64,000 nt of DNA from Actinomycetes bacterium. GTDB taxonomy: Bacteria; Actinomycetota; Thermoleophilia; Solirubrobacterales; 70-9. How positions within the stretch are numbered: the stretch's first letter is position 1; every line of letters begins with the position of its first letter. The position numbers and the translations under genes were made by a program. The stretch spans positions 871,529-935,528 of the forward strand of contig BOKP01000001.1 in the NCBI GenBank assembly GCA_016861045.1, given 5' to 3'. The notes beneath the pieces are model-generated. The model saw nothing but the letters and a program-made list of their open reading frames with translations, had not been told where the DNA came from and made no database searches. This document shows, piece by piece, positions 48,858 through 54,484 of this stretch.

Positions 48858-49265
48858 ATGACCGACCACGAGTTCCCCGAGGAGGAGCGCCGCCTCTACG
48901 ATCGCCTCGCGATCGTCGGCGTGGTGCTCCTGCTGGCGGCCTTCCTGCTCGGCGTCGCGAGCGTCACCTCCGGCTTCGCGCAGGCGTCCGGCGACGACGT
49001 CGTCGCCAAGCGCGATGACGGCGGCGGCGATGACGGCCACGAATCCGGCGACGACGACGATGACGACGACGACACCGGAACGAGGGCGACCGCCACCGGC
49101 ACCACCCAGGGCACGGGTCCGTCCAACACGGCCACCAACGACACGGCGACCGGGACCAAGACCGGCTCCGGCGGCGACACCGCCACCGGCACCACCCAGG
49201 GCACGGGTCCGTCCAACACGGCCACCAACGACACGGCGACCGGGACCCGGACGAAGGGCCGCTGA
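48858..49265 (+). CDS. Single-pass membrane protein with Asp-rich and Thr-repeat outer segment
   Basis: 135 residues. A short charged N-terminus (TDHEFPEEERRLYDRL) precedes one membrane helix (about 17-38). The outside part is low complexity: Gly/Asp-rich with a run of eight Asp (about 66-73), then Thr/Gly/Ser/Asn-rich, built partly from a tandem duplication of 23 codons (ATGTTQGTGPSNTATNDTAT). Good Shine-Dalgarno (GAGAAGGAG) 8 nt before the ATG. No known family. The Thr-rich tail could be glycosylated; the acidic run resembles the tail of the nearby sigma factor. It lies between polA and the kinase gene. Confidence 0.75.
   Translation: MTDHEFPEEERRLYDRLAIVGVVLLLAAFLLGVASVTSGFAQASGDDVVAKRDDGGGDDGHESGDDDDDDDDTGTRATATGTTQGTGPSNTATNDTATGTKTGSGGDTATGTTQGTGPSNTATNDTATGTRTKGR
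49089..49157 (+). repeat. 69-bp direct repeat, copy 1
   Basis: Identical base for base to 49179-49247; 90-bp period, in frame within the acidic/Thr-rich membrane protein gene. Confidence 0.9.
49179..49247 (+). repeat. 69-bp direct repeat, copy 2
   Basis: Exact copy of 49089-49157, separated from it by 21 bp. The absence of any silent difference suggests recent duplication or ongoing gene conversion. Confidence 0.9.
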
Positions 49266-49396
49266 TCCCCCGTCCGGAGGGATCCGGGGCCGACGGGGCG
49301 GCTCGCTCGGGCCGCCCCGTCGCCGCGTCCGCGCCCGAGGCGGGGGGCGATGGCTGGGGGTTCGAGGAGGGGGACGAGATCCTGCCCGGACGCAGC

Positions 49397-50227
49397 GTGC
49401 TCACGAAGCTCGGCGGCGGCCATCGCTACGAGGCCTACCTGGCCTGGGACGGCCATCTGCGGGCCACGGTCGTCGCGAAGCTGGTCCGGCCCGGACGGGT
49501 CGCCGAGGCGGACACCCTGCGCGGGCTGGCCGAGGAGGCGGAGGCGCTGGCCGCCCTCAACCACCCGGTGATCGTCCGCGGCTTCGGGGCCGAGCTCGCA
49601 GGGGCACGCCCCCAGCTCCTGCTCGAGCACCTCGAGGGCCCGCGCCTGTCGAGCCTGATCCGCCGCTACGGGCCGCTCGGCCGCGAGCAGCTCGCCCCGC
49701 TCGCGATCCAGCTCGCGGCCGCGGTCCACTACATGCACGCCGAAGGCTGGGTGCACCTCGACATCAAGCCGGCGAACGTGATCATGGGCGCGCCGCCGCG
49801 ACTGATCGACCTCAGCGTCGCCTGCCGCGCCGAGGTTGCCGCGACGATCGATCAGCCGATCGGCACGGATTCCTACATGGCGCCCGAGCAGTGCCTGCCG
49901 ACCGAGCTCGGCCCGGTCGGGCCGGCCGCCGACGTCTTCGGGCTCGGGGTCACGCTCTATCGCGCGGCCACCGGAGAGCGGCCGTTCGAGCGCGGCAGCG
50001 CCGAGGCCGGCCACGACCGGCCCGAGGAGCGCTGGCCGCAGCTCTCGCTGCCGGCGCTTCCGCTCGCGGCGGAGCTGCCCGCTCCGGTGGCGGCCGCGAT
50101 CGAGTCCTGCCTGGCGTACGAGCCGGCGGCGCGACCGGCGCCGGCGGAGGTCGGTGAGGCCTTCGAGGCGATGCTCGAAGCCCTGCCGAAGCCGCGCCTG
50201 AGCCGGATCAAGCCGCGCTGGAGCTGA
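49397..50227 (+). CDS. Divergent serine/threonine protein kinase
   Basis: At least 276 residues, kinase domain only, no membrane helix. Conserved: VVAKLV (ATP Lys), HLDIKPANV (catalytic Asp, Lys, Asn, with HLD for HRD), MAPEQC (APE) and DVFGLGVTLY. Altered: the glycine loop reads GGGHRYEAY, losing the third Gly, and DFG is DLS (IDLSVAC). The metal-binding Asp is kept, so activity is plausible. The GTG at 49397 is the only standard start, yet in-frame codons upstream back to 49262 read like coding sequence (GFEEGDEILPGRS), and a CTG at 49262 overlaps the previous stop (CTGA). A non-standard start is therefore possible. Confidence 0.8.
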   Translation: MLTKLGGGHRYEAYLAWDGHLRATVVAKLVRPGRVAEADTLRGLAEEAEALAALNHPVIVRGFGAELAGARPQLLLEHLEGPRLSSLIRRYGPLGREQLAPLAIQLAAAVHYMHAEGWVHLDIKPANVIMGAPPRLIDLSVACRAEVAATIDQPIGTDSYMAPEQCLPTELGPVGPAADVFGLGVTLYRAATGERPFERGSAEAGHDRPEERWPQLSLPALPLAAELPAPVAAAIESCLAYEPAARPAPAEVGEAFEAMLEALPKPRLSRIKPRWS

Positions 50228-50337: not shown

Positions 50338-51570
50338 CTAGTCCTCGTCGTCCTCGTCGTCGGAACCGGAGCCGGAGCCCGAGTGGTCGTCGTCGTCCGG
50401 CTCCTCCGGCTCCTCCGGCTCCTCGGGCTCCTCGGGCTCCTCCGGCTCGTCCGGCTCCTCCGGCTCCTCGAGCTCGACCCGATCGTCGTCGTCGAAGTCG
50501 TCGTGGCCGCCGCCGGAAGACCCGGAATGCCCGCCGCCTCCCCCGCTTCCGCCCCCGCCTGACGATTCCGAGGATCCGCCACCGGAGCCCGAGCGCCCTT
50601 CGTTGCGACCGCCCTCGCTTCCGTCGCGTCGCTCCTCCCCGGTTTCGTCGCGCCGATCGTCGCCGTCCTCGCCGGCCGCCTCGCGACGTCGCTCTCCCGC
50701 CGACCCGGCGACCGGCTCGGAGCCGTCGCCGCCGCGCCCGCTCCTCGACCCGGGGCCGGTGGCGGCGCTGGCGGTCTCGGGGCCGGCCGCGGGACGCTCG
50801 TCGCCGGAGCGGCGATCCTGGATCGCCTTGCCGGCGCCCACGGCCACGACCGCGGCCGTCAACCCGACCGCGGCCTTGCCCAGGGCGCCGCCCATCAGCG
50901 CACCGCCTCCCGCCCCCGCGACCCCCGCACCGGCGCCGCCGGCGCCCGCCGCCCCGGCGGCCGCGGCCGTGGCCGCGTCCTCGAGCAGCCAGCGCAGCAC
51001 CGGCAGCGGCACCAGGGCCCCGAGCGCATCTCGCAGCGTCGTCCGCGCCCGGAAGATGAGGCCGCGGACCGCGGTCGGGCTCGTCTCCAGCTTCGCCGCG
51101 ATCTCGGCGTGCCCGACGCCCTCCATCTCGCGCATGACGAGCGCCCGCCGCTGTGATTCCGGCAGCGCGCAGATCGCGTCGACGAGGCGCTCGAGCTCCT
51201 CCCGCTGCTCGGCGGTGGCGGGTACCCGCCGGCCCCCGTGCTGCTCGGGGTCGAGCTCGCTCCACGCCGGCTCGTCGCGAACGGTGTTCAGGGCCCGGTT
51301 GCGGACGATCGCGAACAGCCATGGCCGCAGCCGGATCTCGCGCTCGTCGGCCGCGAGCGCGTCATGGGCCCGCATCAGGGCGGCCTGCACGACGTCCTCG
51401 GCCCGGGCGGCGCCGGCGATCGCGCCGGCGAACGCCACCAGCGGCCCGCGGTAGCGGCGCACGATCTCGTCGAACGCGGGCCCGTGCCCCTCGCGCACCA
51501 GACGCACGAGCCGATCGTCGGACTGGGCGGCGAGCGCGCGCCGCGCGATCGGTCTCAGCGGGGTCGCCAT
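50338..51570 (-). CDS. ECF sigma factor fused to a membrane anchor and acidic tail
   Basis: 410 residues. Sigma region 2 (about 18-90; FDEIVRRYRGPLVAFA, RPWLFAIVRNRALN) and region 4 (about 120-180; ALPESQRRALVMREMEG, SPTAVRGLIFRARTTLRD) form a complete ECF factor. A Gly/Ala-rich stretch with a membrane helix (about 230-250) follows, then some 160 residues of Arg/Asp/Gly/Ser-rich sequence, eight EEP/DEP units and a DDEDDED end, presumably outside. No separate anti-sigma gene is adjacent. The ATG at 51570 is preferred over 51630 because GATAAT lies 9 nt before it. Convergent with the kinase, divergent from pspC. Confidence 0.88.
   Translation of the reverse strand: MATPLRPIARRALAAQSDDRLVRLVREGHGPAFDEIVRRYRGPLVAFAGAIAGAARAEDVVQAALMRAHDALAADEREIRLRPWLFAIVRNRALNTVRDEPAWSELDPEQHGGRRVPATAEQREELERLVDAICALPESQRRALVMREMEGVGHAEIAAKLETSPTAVRGLIFRARTTLRDALGALVPLPVLRWLLEDAATAAAAGAAGAGGAGAGVAGAGGGALMGGALGKAAVGLTAAVVAVGAGKAIQDRRSGDERPAAGPETASAATGPGSRSGRGGDGSEPVAGSAGERRREAAGEDGDDRRDETGEERRDGSEGGRNEGRSGSGGGSSESSGGGGSGGGGGHSGSSGGGHDDFDDDDRVELEEPEEPDEPEEPEEPEEPEEPEEPDDDDHSGSGSGSDDEDDED
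50398..50469 (-). repeat. Eight 9-nt units encoding EEP/DEP
   Basis: Tandem GAG-GAG-CCG-type repeat in the sigma factor tail, with only silent changes and one Glu-to-Asp change. Prone to slippage. Confidence 0.8.
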
Positions 51571-51579
51571 CTCAGCTTC

Positions 51580-51585
51580 ATTATC
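51580..51585 (-). promoter_or_regulatory. Candidate -10 (GATAAT) for the sigma factor gene
   Basis: Minus strand, 9-nt spacer to the ATG at 51570. The rest of the 201-nt divergent region holds a Shine-Dalgarno for pspC (CAGGAGG, 51757-51763) and no other feature I can name. Confidence 0.5.
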
Positions 51586-51771
51586 GTGGCCGTCGTCCTC
51601 GGGCCCGAGCCGTTGCAGCCATGCTCCCACAACCCCGGCCGCTCCCGAAGATCACGGTCGCGGGCCCCCGGGACCGACACGGGACCGATCGGGGTCATCC
51701 CGGATGGACGGGCGGAGCCGGCACCGGCAGCCTGGATGGGTCAGATCCCATCCGATCAGGAGGCCTACGAG

Positions 51772-52785
51772 ATGAACGAGAGATACGAGGATCGAGGCGC
51801 CGGGCCCGATGGCGGGCCCGCTCCGGACGAGGTGCCGACGACCCCGGCGCCGGAGGTGCGCGAGTCGCCGCGGCGCTTTCTGCGCAGCCGCGACGACCGG
51901 GTCGTCGCCGGCGTCTGCGGGGGGCTCGGCCGCTATTTCGACATCGATCCGGTGATCGTCCGCATCGCGTTCGCGGTGACGGTGCTGTTCGGGGGGATCG
52001 GGATCCTCGCCTACCTGGCGGTGGCGCTGTTCGCGCCCGCCGACGACGGCACCGGGGCGCCGGCCGAGGGCGGGCGCGGGCGCGAGATCGCCCAGATCCT
52101 CGGCGTCGTCGCGATCGCGCTCGTCGCGATCGCCGGCTTCGGGGTGCTCGCCGTCGGCGCGGCCGTCCTGACCGGCCTCGGGTTCGGCCTGCCGGTCGCC
52201 GCGGTCGTCGTGGTGATCGGGGTCGCGCTCGCGGCCCTGTCGTTCCGCGGCGGCGCCCGCTGGCTGCTGGTGCCGGCGCTGGCGCTCGCGCTCGGGGTGG
52301 GGGTGGCCGCCGCCTCCGACCTCGACCTCGACGGCGGCATCGGCAAGCGGGACCACCGGCCCGTGTCGGCGGCCGCGATCCCCGCCGGGGGCTACGAGCT
52401 CGGCGCCGGCCGCCTCGCGGTCGATCTCCGCGACATCGGCTGGGGAGCCGAGCGGACGCTCGAGCTCGACGCCCGCGTCGGCGTCGGCCAGCTCGTCGTC
52501 GCGGTCCCCGCAGATGTATGCGTCGAGGCCGATGTCCACGCCGGCGCCGGAGACATCCTCGTCGCCGGCCAGCGCGCGGACGGGTGGGACGTCGACCTGG
52601 CGACCGGCGAGGGGGCGCGGGCGGCGCCGCGGCTCGTGCTGGACGCCGGCGTCGACCTCGGGCAGGTCACGGTCGTCAACGACGATGACGCCGAGATCGG
52701 CGTTCGCGGCTGGGACCGGGACGGCGACGACTACGGCGACGCCGCGGCGATGAGAGCAGCGAACGCGAGGGCCTGCCGGGCGTGA
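51772..52785 (+). CDS. PspC-domain membrane protein with LiaF-like C-terminus
   Basis: 337 residues. A PspC domain (about 35-90; FLRSRDDRVVAGVCGGLGRYFDIDP, then a membrane helix) is followed by two to three more helices (about 105-190) and a soluble beta-rich C-terminal domain (about 205-330) resembling DUF4097/LiaF C-terminal domains. It starts a three-gene unit with overlapping histidine kinase and response regulator genes. In Bacillus and other actinobacteria such PspC/LiaF proteins modulate a LiaRS-type envelope-stress system. Good Shine-Dalgarno before the ATG. Confidence 0.86.
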   Translation: MNERYEDRGAGPDGGPAPDEVPTTPAPEVRESPRRFLRSRDDRVVAGVCGGLGRYFDIDPVIVRIAFAVTVLFGGIGILAYLAVALFAPADDGTGAPAEGGRGREIAQILGVVAIALVAIAGFGVLAVGAAVLTGLGFGLPVAAVVVVIGVALAALSFRGGARWLLVPALALALGVGVAAASDLDLDGGIGKRDHRPVSAAAIPAGGYELGAGRLAVDLRDIGWGAERTLELDARVGVGQLVVAVPADVCVEADVHAGAGDILVAGQRADGWDVDLATGEGARAAPRLVLDAGVDLGQVTVVNDDDAEIGVRGWDRDGDDYGDAAAMRAANARACRA

Positions 52786-53840
52786 GCCGGGAGCGCGTCG
52801 ATCGGGTCTCGCTGGTCGCCGGCGTGGCCGTCGTCCTGCTCGGCGCCGCGCTCTGTCTCGATCAGCTCGACCTGGTCGCGCTCGACCCCGACCTCTTCCG
52901 CGACCTCGGGCTCTGGTGGAGCGCCGCGATCGTCGCGCCGCTCGTCCTCGCCGCCGCCGGGGCCGCCCTGCTCTGGGCGCTCTCCGGCGGCGGGGACCCG
53001 GCGCCGCGGTCGCGGCCGGCCGCCGCGGTCGTCCCGCGCGACAGTCCGGCGTCTGCGCCCTCTCCCGCGGCCCGCCTCCGCGACCTCTACCGGGGCGGTT
53101 TCGGGGTCGCGCTCGTGGTCGGGGCCGGGCTGCTCTTCCTCGCCCGTGTCGATGCCCTCGGCGGTGCCCGTGACGCCGCCTTCACCGCGATCGTCGCCGT
53201 CCTCGCGCTGGCTCTGATCCTCGCTCCCTTCATCTGGCGGCTCGGTCGCAGCCTCGCCGCCGAGCGGGCCGAGCGGATCCGCTCCCAGGAGCGCGCCGAG
53301 ATGGCGGCGCACCTGCACGATTCCGTGCTGCAGACGCTGACGCTGATGCAGAAGCGAGCCGGCGATCCGCGTGAGGTCGCGGCGCTGGCGCGGCGGCAGG
53401 AGCGCGAGTTGCGCGGCTGGCTGAGCTCGGGCCGCACCGCCGCCGCGGGCGGCCTCGCGGCCGCGTTGCGGGCGGCGGCGGAGGAGGTCGAGGATGCCCA
53501 CCGGGTCGAGGTCGACGTGGTGACCGTCGGCGATTGCGCGCTCGACGAGGGCGCCGGGGCGCTCGTGGCCGCGACCCGCGAGGCCCTCGTCAACGCCGCC
53601 AAGTTCGCCGGTGACGCCGGCCCGGTCTCGGTCTACGCCGAGGTCTCCCCAGAGCTGATCGAGGCCTACGTGCGCGACCGCGGCGCCGGATTCGACGTCG
53701 AGCGGATCGGCGGCGACCGCCACGGGGTACGAGAGTCGATCGTCGGCAGGATGCGCCGCCACGGCGGCGATGCGACGATCGCCTCGATGCCCGGCTCCGG
53801 AACCGAGGTCGCGCTCTCGCTGCCACGGGAGGCGCGATGA
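52782..53840 (+). CDS. Sensor histidine kinase (HisKA_3 / NarL-partner type)
   Basis: 352 residues. Four membrane helices in two hairpins (about 10-30, 45-66, 105-122 and 128-150) with little outside sequence. Dimerisation/phospho-acceptor box AAHLHDSVLQTLTLMQKR (about 175-192). HATPase: EALVNAAKFA (N box), DRGAGFD (G1) and GSGTEVALSLP (G2). Short external loops suggest an intramembrane-sensing kinase like LiaS. The GTG start overlaps pspC (GTGA) and the stop overlaps the regulator gene (ATGA). Confidence 0.93.
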   Translation: MSRERVDRVSLVAGVAVVLLGAALCLDQLDLVALDPDLFRDLGLWWSAAIVAPLVLAAAGAALLWALSGGGDPAPRSRPAAAVVPRDSPASAPSPAARLRDLYRGGFGVALVVGAGLLFLARVDALGGARDAAFTAIVAVLALALILAPFIWRLGRSLAAERAERIRSQERAEMAAHLHDSVLQTLTLMQKRAGDPREVAALARRQERELRGWLSSGRTAAAGGLAAALRAAAEEVEDAHRVEVDVVTVGDCALDEGAGALVAATREALVNAAKFAGDAGPVSVYAEVSPELIEAYVRDRGAGFDVERIGGDRHGVRESIVGRMRRHGGDATIASMPGSGTEVALSLPREAR

Positions 53841-54484
53841 GCCCGCGGCCGACGATCGTGATCGTCGACGACCACGCGCTCTTTCGCAGCGGCGTGCGCT
53901 CCGAGGTCGAGGGCCTGGTCGAGGTCGTCGGCGAGGCGGGATCGGTGGAGGAGGCGGTGCGCGTGATCGCCGACCGCCGCCCCGATGTCGTCCTGCTCGA
54001 CGTCCACATGCCCGGCGGCGGCGGGGTGGAGGTGATCCGGCGCGTCGCCGCGACCGATCCCGGGCAGCGCTTCCTCGCCCTCTCGGTCTCCGACGCCGCC
54101 GAGGACGTGATCGCCGTGGTCCGCGCCGGCGCGCGCGGCTACGTCACGAAGTCGATCTCCGGCGAGGATCTCGCCGCGGCGGTCGGCCGGGTCCGCGACG
54201 GCGATGCGGTCTTCTCGCCGCGTCTCGCCGGGTTCGTGCTCGACGCCTTCGCCGGCACCGTCCCCGCCGCCGAGGTCGACCCGGAGCTCGATCAGCTGAC
54301 GATCCGCGAGCGGGAGGTCCTGCGGCTGATCGCCCGCGGCTACATGTACAAGGAGGTGGCGCTGCGGCTCGACATCTCGCCGCGCACGGTCGAGGCCCAC
54401 GTCAGCGCCGTCCTCCGCAAGCTGCAGCTCTCGAACCGGCACGAGCTCAGCCGCTGGGCGGTCGAGCGGCGCCTGCTCGACTGA
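53837..54484 (+). CDS. LuxR/NarL-family response regulator
   Basis: 215 residues. Receiver domain: acidic pair Asp11/Asp12, phospho-acceptor Asp55 in VLLDVHMPG, Lys in VTKSIS. C-terminal LuxR-type helix-turn-helix (about 150-212; LTIREREVLRLIARGYMYKEVA and SPRTVEAHVSAVLRKLQL). Coupled by ATGA overlap to the kinase gene. Expected target: its own operon and envelope genes, by family analogy. Confidence 0.95.
   Translation: MSPRPTIVIVDDHALFRSGVRSEVEGLVEVVGEAGSVEEAVRVIADRRPDVVLLDVHMPGGGGVEVIRRVAATDPGQRFLALSVSDAAEDVIAVVRAGARGYVTKSISGEDLAAAVGRVRDGDAVFSPRLAGFVLDAFAGTVPAAEVDPELDQLTIREREVLRLIARGYMYKEVALRLDISPRTVEAHVSAVLRKLQLSNRHELSRWAVERRLLD

What the first reader, a model, noticed from the sequence alone, without database searches (positions are those of the whole stretch)
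49262..50227. Kinase with altered HRD/DFG/glycine loop and no standard start for its conserved N-terminus
HLD replaces HRD, DLS replaces DFG and the glycine loop lacks its third Gly, yet ATP Lys, catalytic Asp and Asn remain. Coding-like sequence (GFEEGDEILPGRS) precedes the only GTG, and the in-frame CTG at 49262 overlaps the previous stop as CTGA, the geometry of this genome's coupled starts.
Basis: partly seen in the sequence, partly recalled or inferred. Interest (0 to 1): 0.5.

Follow-up and report, generated by a model that had tools for sequence, protein, structure and literature searches.

The report
Bacterial kinase with a misplaced start
This is an intact-looking member of an uncharacterised family of bacterial protein kinases that sits beside a membrane protein with a repetitive tail; its missing start codon is most likely a one-base slip just after the real start rather than an exotic start codon.

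Summary
The kinase frame (49397-50227) has no in-frame ATG/GTG/TTG before GTG 49397, yet the 14 codons before it (WGFEEGDEILPGRS) match a family signature, and all 48 homologue loci read (40 distinct) have a canonical start ahead of it. HLD for HRD, D-L/F-S for DFG and Tyr/Phe at the third glycine are family traits (25, 25 and 24 of 25 aligned); ATP Lys, catalytic Asp, Asn and metal Asp are invariant, so it is probably an active non-RD kinase. The CTG reading is not favoured. The 84 nt before ATG 49350 hold a perfect 12-bp hairpin, and spacers of homologous gene pairs are of similar length and mostly fold likewise. ATG 49350 has the strongest ribosome-binding site of four candidates but is one base out of frame. 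I favour a one-base loss between 49350 and 49355 (assembly error or recent mutation; 0.57). CTG 49262/ATC 49265 remains possible (0.25): the spacer looks more coding than any of 31 upstream controls, and another gene of this genome has a conserved AUC start candidate. The kinase belongs to an unnamed cassette with an exported low-complexity-tail protein (24 of 39 loci; 1 of 136 controls).

The parts
48858..49265 (+). Upstream partner gene, 135 aa: short N-terminus, one hydrophobic segment, AKRDD motif, Asp run, then Thr/Gly/Asn/Asp repeats (TGTTQGTGPSNTATNDTATGT twice)
   Evidence: similar genes beside homologous kinases; no NCBIfam family, only a sub-threshold Pfam Mucin match
49262..49264 (+).
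   Evidence: predicted Shine-Dalgarno energy -4.0, 53% of called starts are as strong or stronger
49265..49267 (+). ATC, alternative near-cognate start (TGATC); the homologue L068 has TGATG at the stop of its upstream gene
   Evidence: energy -3.8
49291..49322 (+). Perfect 12-bp inverted repeat with 8-nt loop in the spacer; probable intergenic attenuator hairpin
49337..49340 (+). GAGG, Shine-Dalgarno-like, 9 nt before ATG 49350
   Evidence: sequence; energy of the site -8.0, 16% of called starts as strong or stronger
49350..49352 (+). ATG, favoured start codon, one base out of the kinase frame
   Evidence: spacing from upstream stop 84 nt, eight homologous pairs 71-98 nt
49355..49396 (+). Family-conserved N-terminal signature W-x-F-E-E-G-D-E-I-x-P-G-R-S, predicted ordered
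49397..50227 (+). Rest of the kinase domain from GTG; Pfam Pkinase 113 bits

Best explanation
A soluble Hanks-type Ser/Thr kinase of an unnamed, patchily distributed actinobacterial family, probably active and of the non-RD type. The missing Arg of HRD (Leu here) suggests that it does not depend on activation-loop phosphorylation (inference from the general rule for RD kinases, recalled). It is the second gene of a two-gene cassette whose first gene makes an exported or membrane protein with a low-complexity polar tail. A strong hairpin between the two genes probably lowers the kinase's expression relative to its partner (inferred). The true start codon is most likely ATG 49350. As the sequence stands it is one base out of frame with the conserved Trp codon 49355, so a net one-base loss lies between them: either an error in the assembly or a recent frameshift in this lineage. 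The 84 nt before it are a non-coding spacer. Shown: family, motifs, missing in-frame start, hairpin, spacing, SD strength. Inferred: the base loss, kinase activity, and a role in envelope signalling with the partner.
For: All 48 homologue loci read (34, 14; 40 distinct after removing eight seen twice) have a canonical in-frame start ahead of the signature. Of 12 gene pairs tested (window included; a 13th, L060, gave no partner gene), 9 have a predicted hairpin as the main feature of the spacer (judged by eye on the fold). The eight homologous ones have spacers of 71-98 nt; the window's is 84 nt if ATG 49350 is the start. A 12-bp perfect stem occurs in 0 of 394 first-84-nt coding stretches and 1 of 46 intergenic gaps of this genome's sample; the window spacer folds at z = -3.3. 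ATG 49350 has the best SD of the four candidates and is the only canonical start in any frame between 49262 and 49396. The first 29 codons from CTG score +2.0, below the 5th percentile (3.65) of gene starts called in the window. The conserved N-terminus is predicted ordered, mean pLDDT 94 over residues 1-10, so starting at GTG would cut the fold. Two members of the family look broken: L051 and L069. Catalytic residues 25 of 25; closest fold PknB, Z 30.8.
Against: It needs a base that is not in the sequence. With it, the start would lie only 2 codons before the Trp; the nearest canonical starts of the homologues lie 3-27 codons before the matching place. Coding-frame analysis of 464 kb found few mid-gene frameshifts: 4 candidates, at a sensitivity of 20 of 30 planted deletions, so errors are not common here. 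The first 29 codons from CTG score above all 31 other stop-free upstream stretches of called genes (the 32nd control was the kinase itself), and the spacer is the most coding-like of nine cassette spacers. The hairpin evidence is uneven: z is -2 or lower in 6 of 9 and weaker in L010, L043 and L069; by the perfect-stem measure 5 of 9 stand out and L010, L014, L041 and L043 do not. The same genome contains a conserved AUC-start candidate.
Confidence: 0.57

Rival explanations
1. Near-cognate start in the stop overlap: CTG 49262 (4-base overlap) or ATC 49265 (TGATC), translated through the hairpin by termination-reinitiation.
For: No base change needed. The frame is open, scores more coding-like than 31 of 31 other upstream stretches, and the coding model switches frame at 49261 (one of 18 such changes without a canonical start within 45 nt, of 146). 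L068 has TGATG at its upstream stop. NTGA overlaps are usual here. A BagA/ArsA-like gene of this genome has a conserved AUC/AUA/AUU codon at the start position of its relatives.
Against: The leader holds a 12-bp perfect stem, seen in 0 of 394 coding starts. Most homologous spacers carry hairpins and lie before a canonical start. The leader is not conserved: similarity to L010's leader is reached by 27% of shuffles, although an 11-base DNA match in phase is reached by only 9 of 1000. SD weaker than at ATG 49350.
Confidence: 0.25
2. Translation starts at GTG 49397, giving a kinase domain without the family's N-terminal segment.
For: It is the only in-frame canonical start near the domain's beginning; Pfam Pkinase matches from residue 46 of the CTG-started frame, so the catalytic core remains.
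Against: The homologues include the segment; it is fully conserved in the window although unneeded under this reading; GTG falls at residue 16, two residues into predicted strand beta1 (14-22), and removes strand 9-11; SD is the weakest of the four.
Confidence: 0.1
3. The gene is a recent pseudogene, inactivated by a real frameshift after ATG 49350.
For: Same geometry as the favoured reading; two other loci of the family look broken (L051, L069).
Against: The remaining 290 codons are intact, coding-like and carry the catalytic residues; no relative of the same species is held to date the event (the two other genomes of the genus lack the gene at E 1e-50).
Confidence: 0.08

Closest known systems
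PknB/PknA catalytic domains (Hanks-type Ser/Thr kinases)
   Same: Fold (Z 30.8, rmsd 1.8 A over 252 residues to 5u94, 28% identity), ATP Lys, catalytic Asp/Lys/Asn, metal Asp, GTxxYMxPEQ activation segment
   Different: HLD not HRD, D-L/F-S not DFG, no third glycine, conserved W-x-F-x-E-G-D-E-I-x-P-G ahead of beta1, no membrane or PASTA part seen in the 291 aa; NCBIfam PknB model scores 106 against a cut-off of 450
Bacterial pseudokinase families (ActPs1-3, DLHK etc.; PMC12599244, passages seen)
   Same: Degenerate motifs around the active site
   Different: That paper's criterion is loss of beta3 Lys, HRD Asp or DFG Asp; here all three are kept in 25 of 25
AUU-start genes such as infC (recalled)
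   Same: Would resemble the CTG/ATC reading
   Different: In the kinase the near-cognate start is neither conserved among homologues nor the best-supported one

Membership tests
Hanks-type Ser/Thr protein kinase (Pfam PF00069) | Profile match above the curated cut-off | tested here: met
   113.4 bits against 31.7
Hanks-type Ser/Thr protein kinase (Pfam PF00069) | beta3 Lys, alphaC Glu, catalytic Asp, Asn, metal Asp | tested here: met
   K43, E62, D137, N142, D153, each 25 of 25
Hanks-type Ser/Thr protein kinase (Pfam PF00069) | Bilobal kinase fold | tested here: met
   AlphaFold2 mean pLDDT 93.7; PknB Z 30.8
Hanks-type Ser/Thr protein kinase (Pfam PF00069) | Phosphotransfer activity | not testable with these tools
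   needs a biochemical assay
RD kinases | Arg before the catalytic Asp | tested here: not met
   Leu in 25 of 25
Stk1/PknB PASTA kinase (NF033483) | Score over the equivalog cut-off | tested here: not met
   106.3 against 450
Pseudokinase | Loss of beta3 Lys, HRD Asp or DFG Asp | tested here: not met
   all present; criterion from PMC12599244

The most novel reading that the evidence does not exclude
The kinase really is translated from ATC 49265 or CTG 49262 in the stop/start overlap, through a hairpin that also acts as attenuator, as one case of a wider use of AUH-type start codons in this family of Solirubrobacterales-like bacteria; the BagA-like gene (ATC in this genome and its congener, AUC/AUA/AUU in most relatives read) would be the conserved case.
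Probability: 0.22. Interest if true: 0.6.

Novelty: new variant of a known kind. Interest (0 to 1): 0.4.

Why it matters
The kinase family has its own signature (N-terminal W-x-F-x-E-G-D-E-I-x-P-G, GGGxxY loop, HLD, D-L/F-S) and a strong, unnamed genomic link to exported low-complexity-tail proteins and, in part of the family, to two-component genes. That makes a testable envelope-signalling module of unknown function. The start-codon question shows how a one-base slip can pass for an exotic start, and where to look for real ones: the BagA-like gene.

Tried and rejected
Leader homology to the relatives' leaders: not significant at protein level. Coding score alone as judge of the leader: between non-coding and coding, not decisive. 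A programmed -1 ribosomal shift after ATG 49350: considered; I saw no clear slippery heptamer, not tested by any search. Random frame: rejected, the signature is in frame and complete. Frame-change scan: the first setting gave zero changes because of my penalties; one search replaced it. ECF sigma factor downstream (50338-51630, minus) as kinase partner in the manner of EcfK/PknS (PMC13147305, start of the abstract seen in search listings): I noticed none beside the homologues shown, read by eye and partly cut from view, so it is not claimed. Literature: no description of this family or cassette noticed in the listings, nor of the AUH start; the library is open-access only and I opened one paper. 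A structural relative outside the rows is neither shown nor excluded. L097 3680-4732, another gene without a canonical start, had no relatives among the 25 other genomes searched and stays unresolved. One search read only 6 of 14 further homologue loci; one search read all 14. In one search the start of L061 was taken one codon too far upstream: its spacer is 94 nt, not 91; the range 71-98 stands. For pairs with several in-frame starts (L010, L046, L061) I chose one by eye.

Full report
Observation. The frame 49397-50227 encodes a protein kinase domain (Pfam Pkinase, 113.4 bits), one of 8 matches of this family in the 2.7-Mb genome. The only canonical start codons of any frame in 49262-49399 are ATG 49350 (out of frame) and GTG 49397.

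Family. Searches found close homologues (E below 1e-50; counts include the window's own genome) in 5 of 50 genomes of the family, 18 of 232 of the order and 14 of 396 drawn from the phylum, plus 14 loci in the named genome collection, by title mostly Solirubrobacterales, Thermoleophilia and other actinobacterial MAGs (two of the 14, L051 and L052, are partial or remote). In an alignment of 25 (window plus 24 homologues chosen from these, 45-60% identity to the window) the Arg of HRD is Leu in 25 of 25, the DFG place is D-L-S in 22 and D-F-S in 3, and the third glycine is Tyr 20, Phe 4, His 1. Lys43, Glu62, His135, Asp137, Lys139, Asn142 and Asp153 are invariant. L121, read later, has D-M-S. 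So the altered motifs mark a subfamily. By the criterion used in PMC12599244 (passages seen) it is not a pseudokinase. The AlphaFold2 model is confident (mean pLDDT 93.7) and nearest to M. tuberculosis PknB (Z 30.8).

N-terminus. The segment W-x-[FL]-x-E-G-D-E-I-x-P-G is conserved (Trp 24 of 25; absent also in L116 and L125), lies before GTG 49397, and is predicted ordered with an extra strand at residues 9-11 ahead of beta1 at 14-22. In 48 homologue loci read (34, 14; 40 distinct) a canonical in-frame start precedes it, the nearest one 3-27 codons before the Trp place. The window is the exception. Upstream of the Trp I found no significant conservation (eight comparisons with leaders of seven loci).

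Where is the start? Of 12 gene pairs with the same kind of upstream gene (window included; L060 dropped for want of a partner), 9 have a spacer whose fold is dominated by a hairpin. The eight homologous spacers are 71-98 nt long. L045 (38 nt), L068 (overlap TGATG) and L071 (21 nt) lack it. The support is uneven: z ranges from -1.0 to -6.6, with -2 or lower in 6 of 9; the longest perfect stem stands out against shuffles in 5 of 9. In the window the hairpin is a perfect 12-bp stem at 49291-49322. Among 394 coding starts of this genome's sample none holds such a stem; among 46 same-strand gaps of 60-110 nt one does. Counting to ATG 49350 the spacer is 84 nt, inside the homologues' range, and ATG 49350 has the best predicted Shine-Dalgarno pairing (-8.0, against -4.0 for CTG, -3.8 for ATC and -3.2 for GTG; 16%, 53%, 54% and 60% of called starts are as strong or stronger). 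It is one base out of frame with the Trp codon five bases later. I conclude that a base is missing there, by assembly error or recent mutation (0.57). Against this stand the very short distance to the Trp, the low number of frameshifts elsewhere (4 candidates in 464 kb), and the coding score: the 29 codons from CTG beat all 31 other stop-free upstream stretches, though they fall below the 5th percentile of called gene starts.

Near-cognate starts may exist here. The same ranking turned up two other genes with long coding-like stretches before the first canonical start. One (C1:574777-575703, minus; Pfam ArsA_ATPase, NCBIfam BagA below its cut-off) has ATC where several relatives have GTG, TTG or ATG, 13 codons before the P-loop. 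In 25 family loci read of 32 given (own genome included), that codon is ATC 8, ATA 6, GTG 5, ATT 4, TTG 1, ACG 1 and never ATG; one search adds ATG 1, ATA 1, ATT 1 and GTA 1 (at a contig edge). Inside the same genes Ile codons are ATC 339, ATT 8, ATA 8, so the mix at that place is not ordinary isoleucine usage. Caution: six loci of one genus also have an in-frame TTG four codons earlier, and most others without GTG or TTG at that place have some in-frame GTG or TTG 2-5 or 35-44 codons before the P-loop; only the window's own genome has none within 45 codons. Outside the family the place rarely aligns: 2 of 10 order-level loci read have a canonical start exactly there (L155 gave no P-loop, L161 belongs to the family). 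This raises the prior for ATC 49265 and keeps that rival at about 0.25.

Cassette. A gene for a protein with a hydrophobic segment near its N-terminus and a low-complexity polar tail lies within a few genes of the kinase in 24 of 39 loci (window included), by a fixed rule, against 1 of 136 control genes. The controls come from this one genome only. One of the 24 (L129) is doubtful, and the rule missed at least L073 and L083, where searches show such a gene. The order varies: upstream in the window's near relatives, downstream in others. Histidine-kinase or response-regulator motifs were tagged near 11 of 39 (one pair, in L050, checked by Pfam as HAMP-HisKA kinase and OmpR-type regulator). In the window an ECF sigma factor, a PspC protein and another two-component pair follow. 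The loci are not all independent.

Mechanism. Most likely a soluble kinase that acts with the membrane or exported partner in envelope signalling; as a non-RD kinase it need not await activation-loop phosphorylation (general rule, recalled). Substrate, partner contact and the attenuating effect of the hairpin are inferred, not shown.

Noticed in passing
L107 14777-15703 minus (own genome C1:574777-575703); relatives L140, L164-L192: BagA/ArsA-like ATPase gene with AUC/AUA/AUU at the conserved start position in 18 of 25 family loci read, ATG in none of the 25 (one ATG, L145); own genome ATC with no in-frame canonical start before the P-loop. A conserved near-cognate start candidate; a -10-like AAT sits shortly upstream in many loci, which hints at leaderless mRNA (by eye).
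   Followed up: partly
L097 3680-4732 (own genome C1:163482-164732): Gene with 66 coding-like codons before its first canonical start; no relatives in 25 other genomes at E 1e-20, no Pfam match at 0.001.
   Followed up: partly
48858-49265 and homologues: Exported low-complexity-tail proteins with a KR[DE][DE]-like motif in many, an Asp run and Thr/Arg/Asp/Ser/Asn repeats (TQGTG, RDRSRD) next to this kinase across several actinobacterial lineages; no named family for the ones scanned.
   Followed up: partly
50338-51630 minus: ECF sigma factor with a C-terminal hydrophobic segment and a long acidic, Ser/Gly-rich tail, convergent with the kinase gene.
   Followed up: no
52782-54484: Histidine kinase and response-regulator gene pair after a PspC-domain gene, coupled by ATGA/GTGA overlaps (the two were named by eye).
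   Followed up: no
L051, L069: Two kinase homologues with broken reading frames (open frame of only 77 codons, and frame lost in the C-terminal lobe).
   Followed up: no
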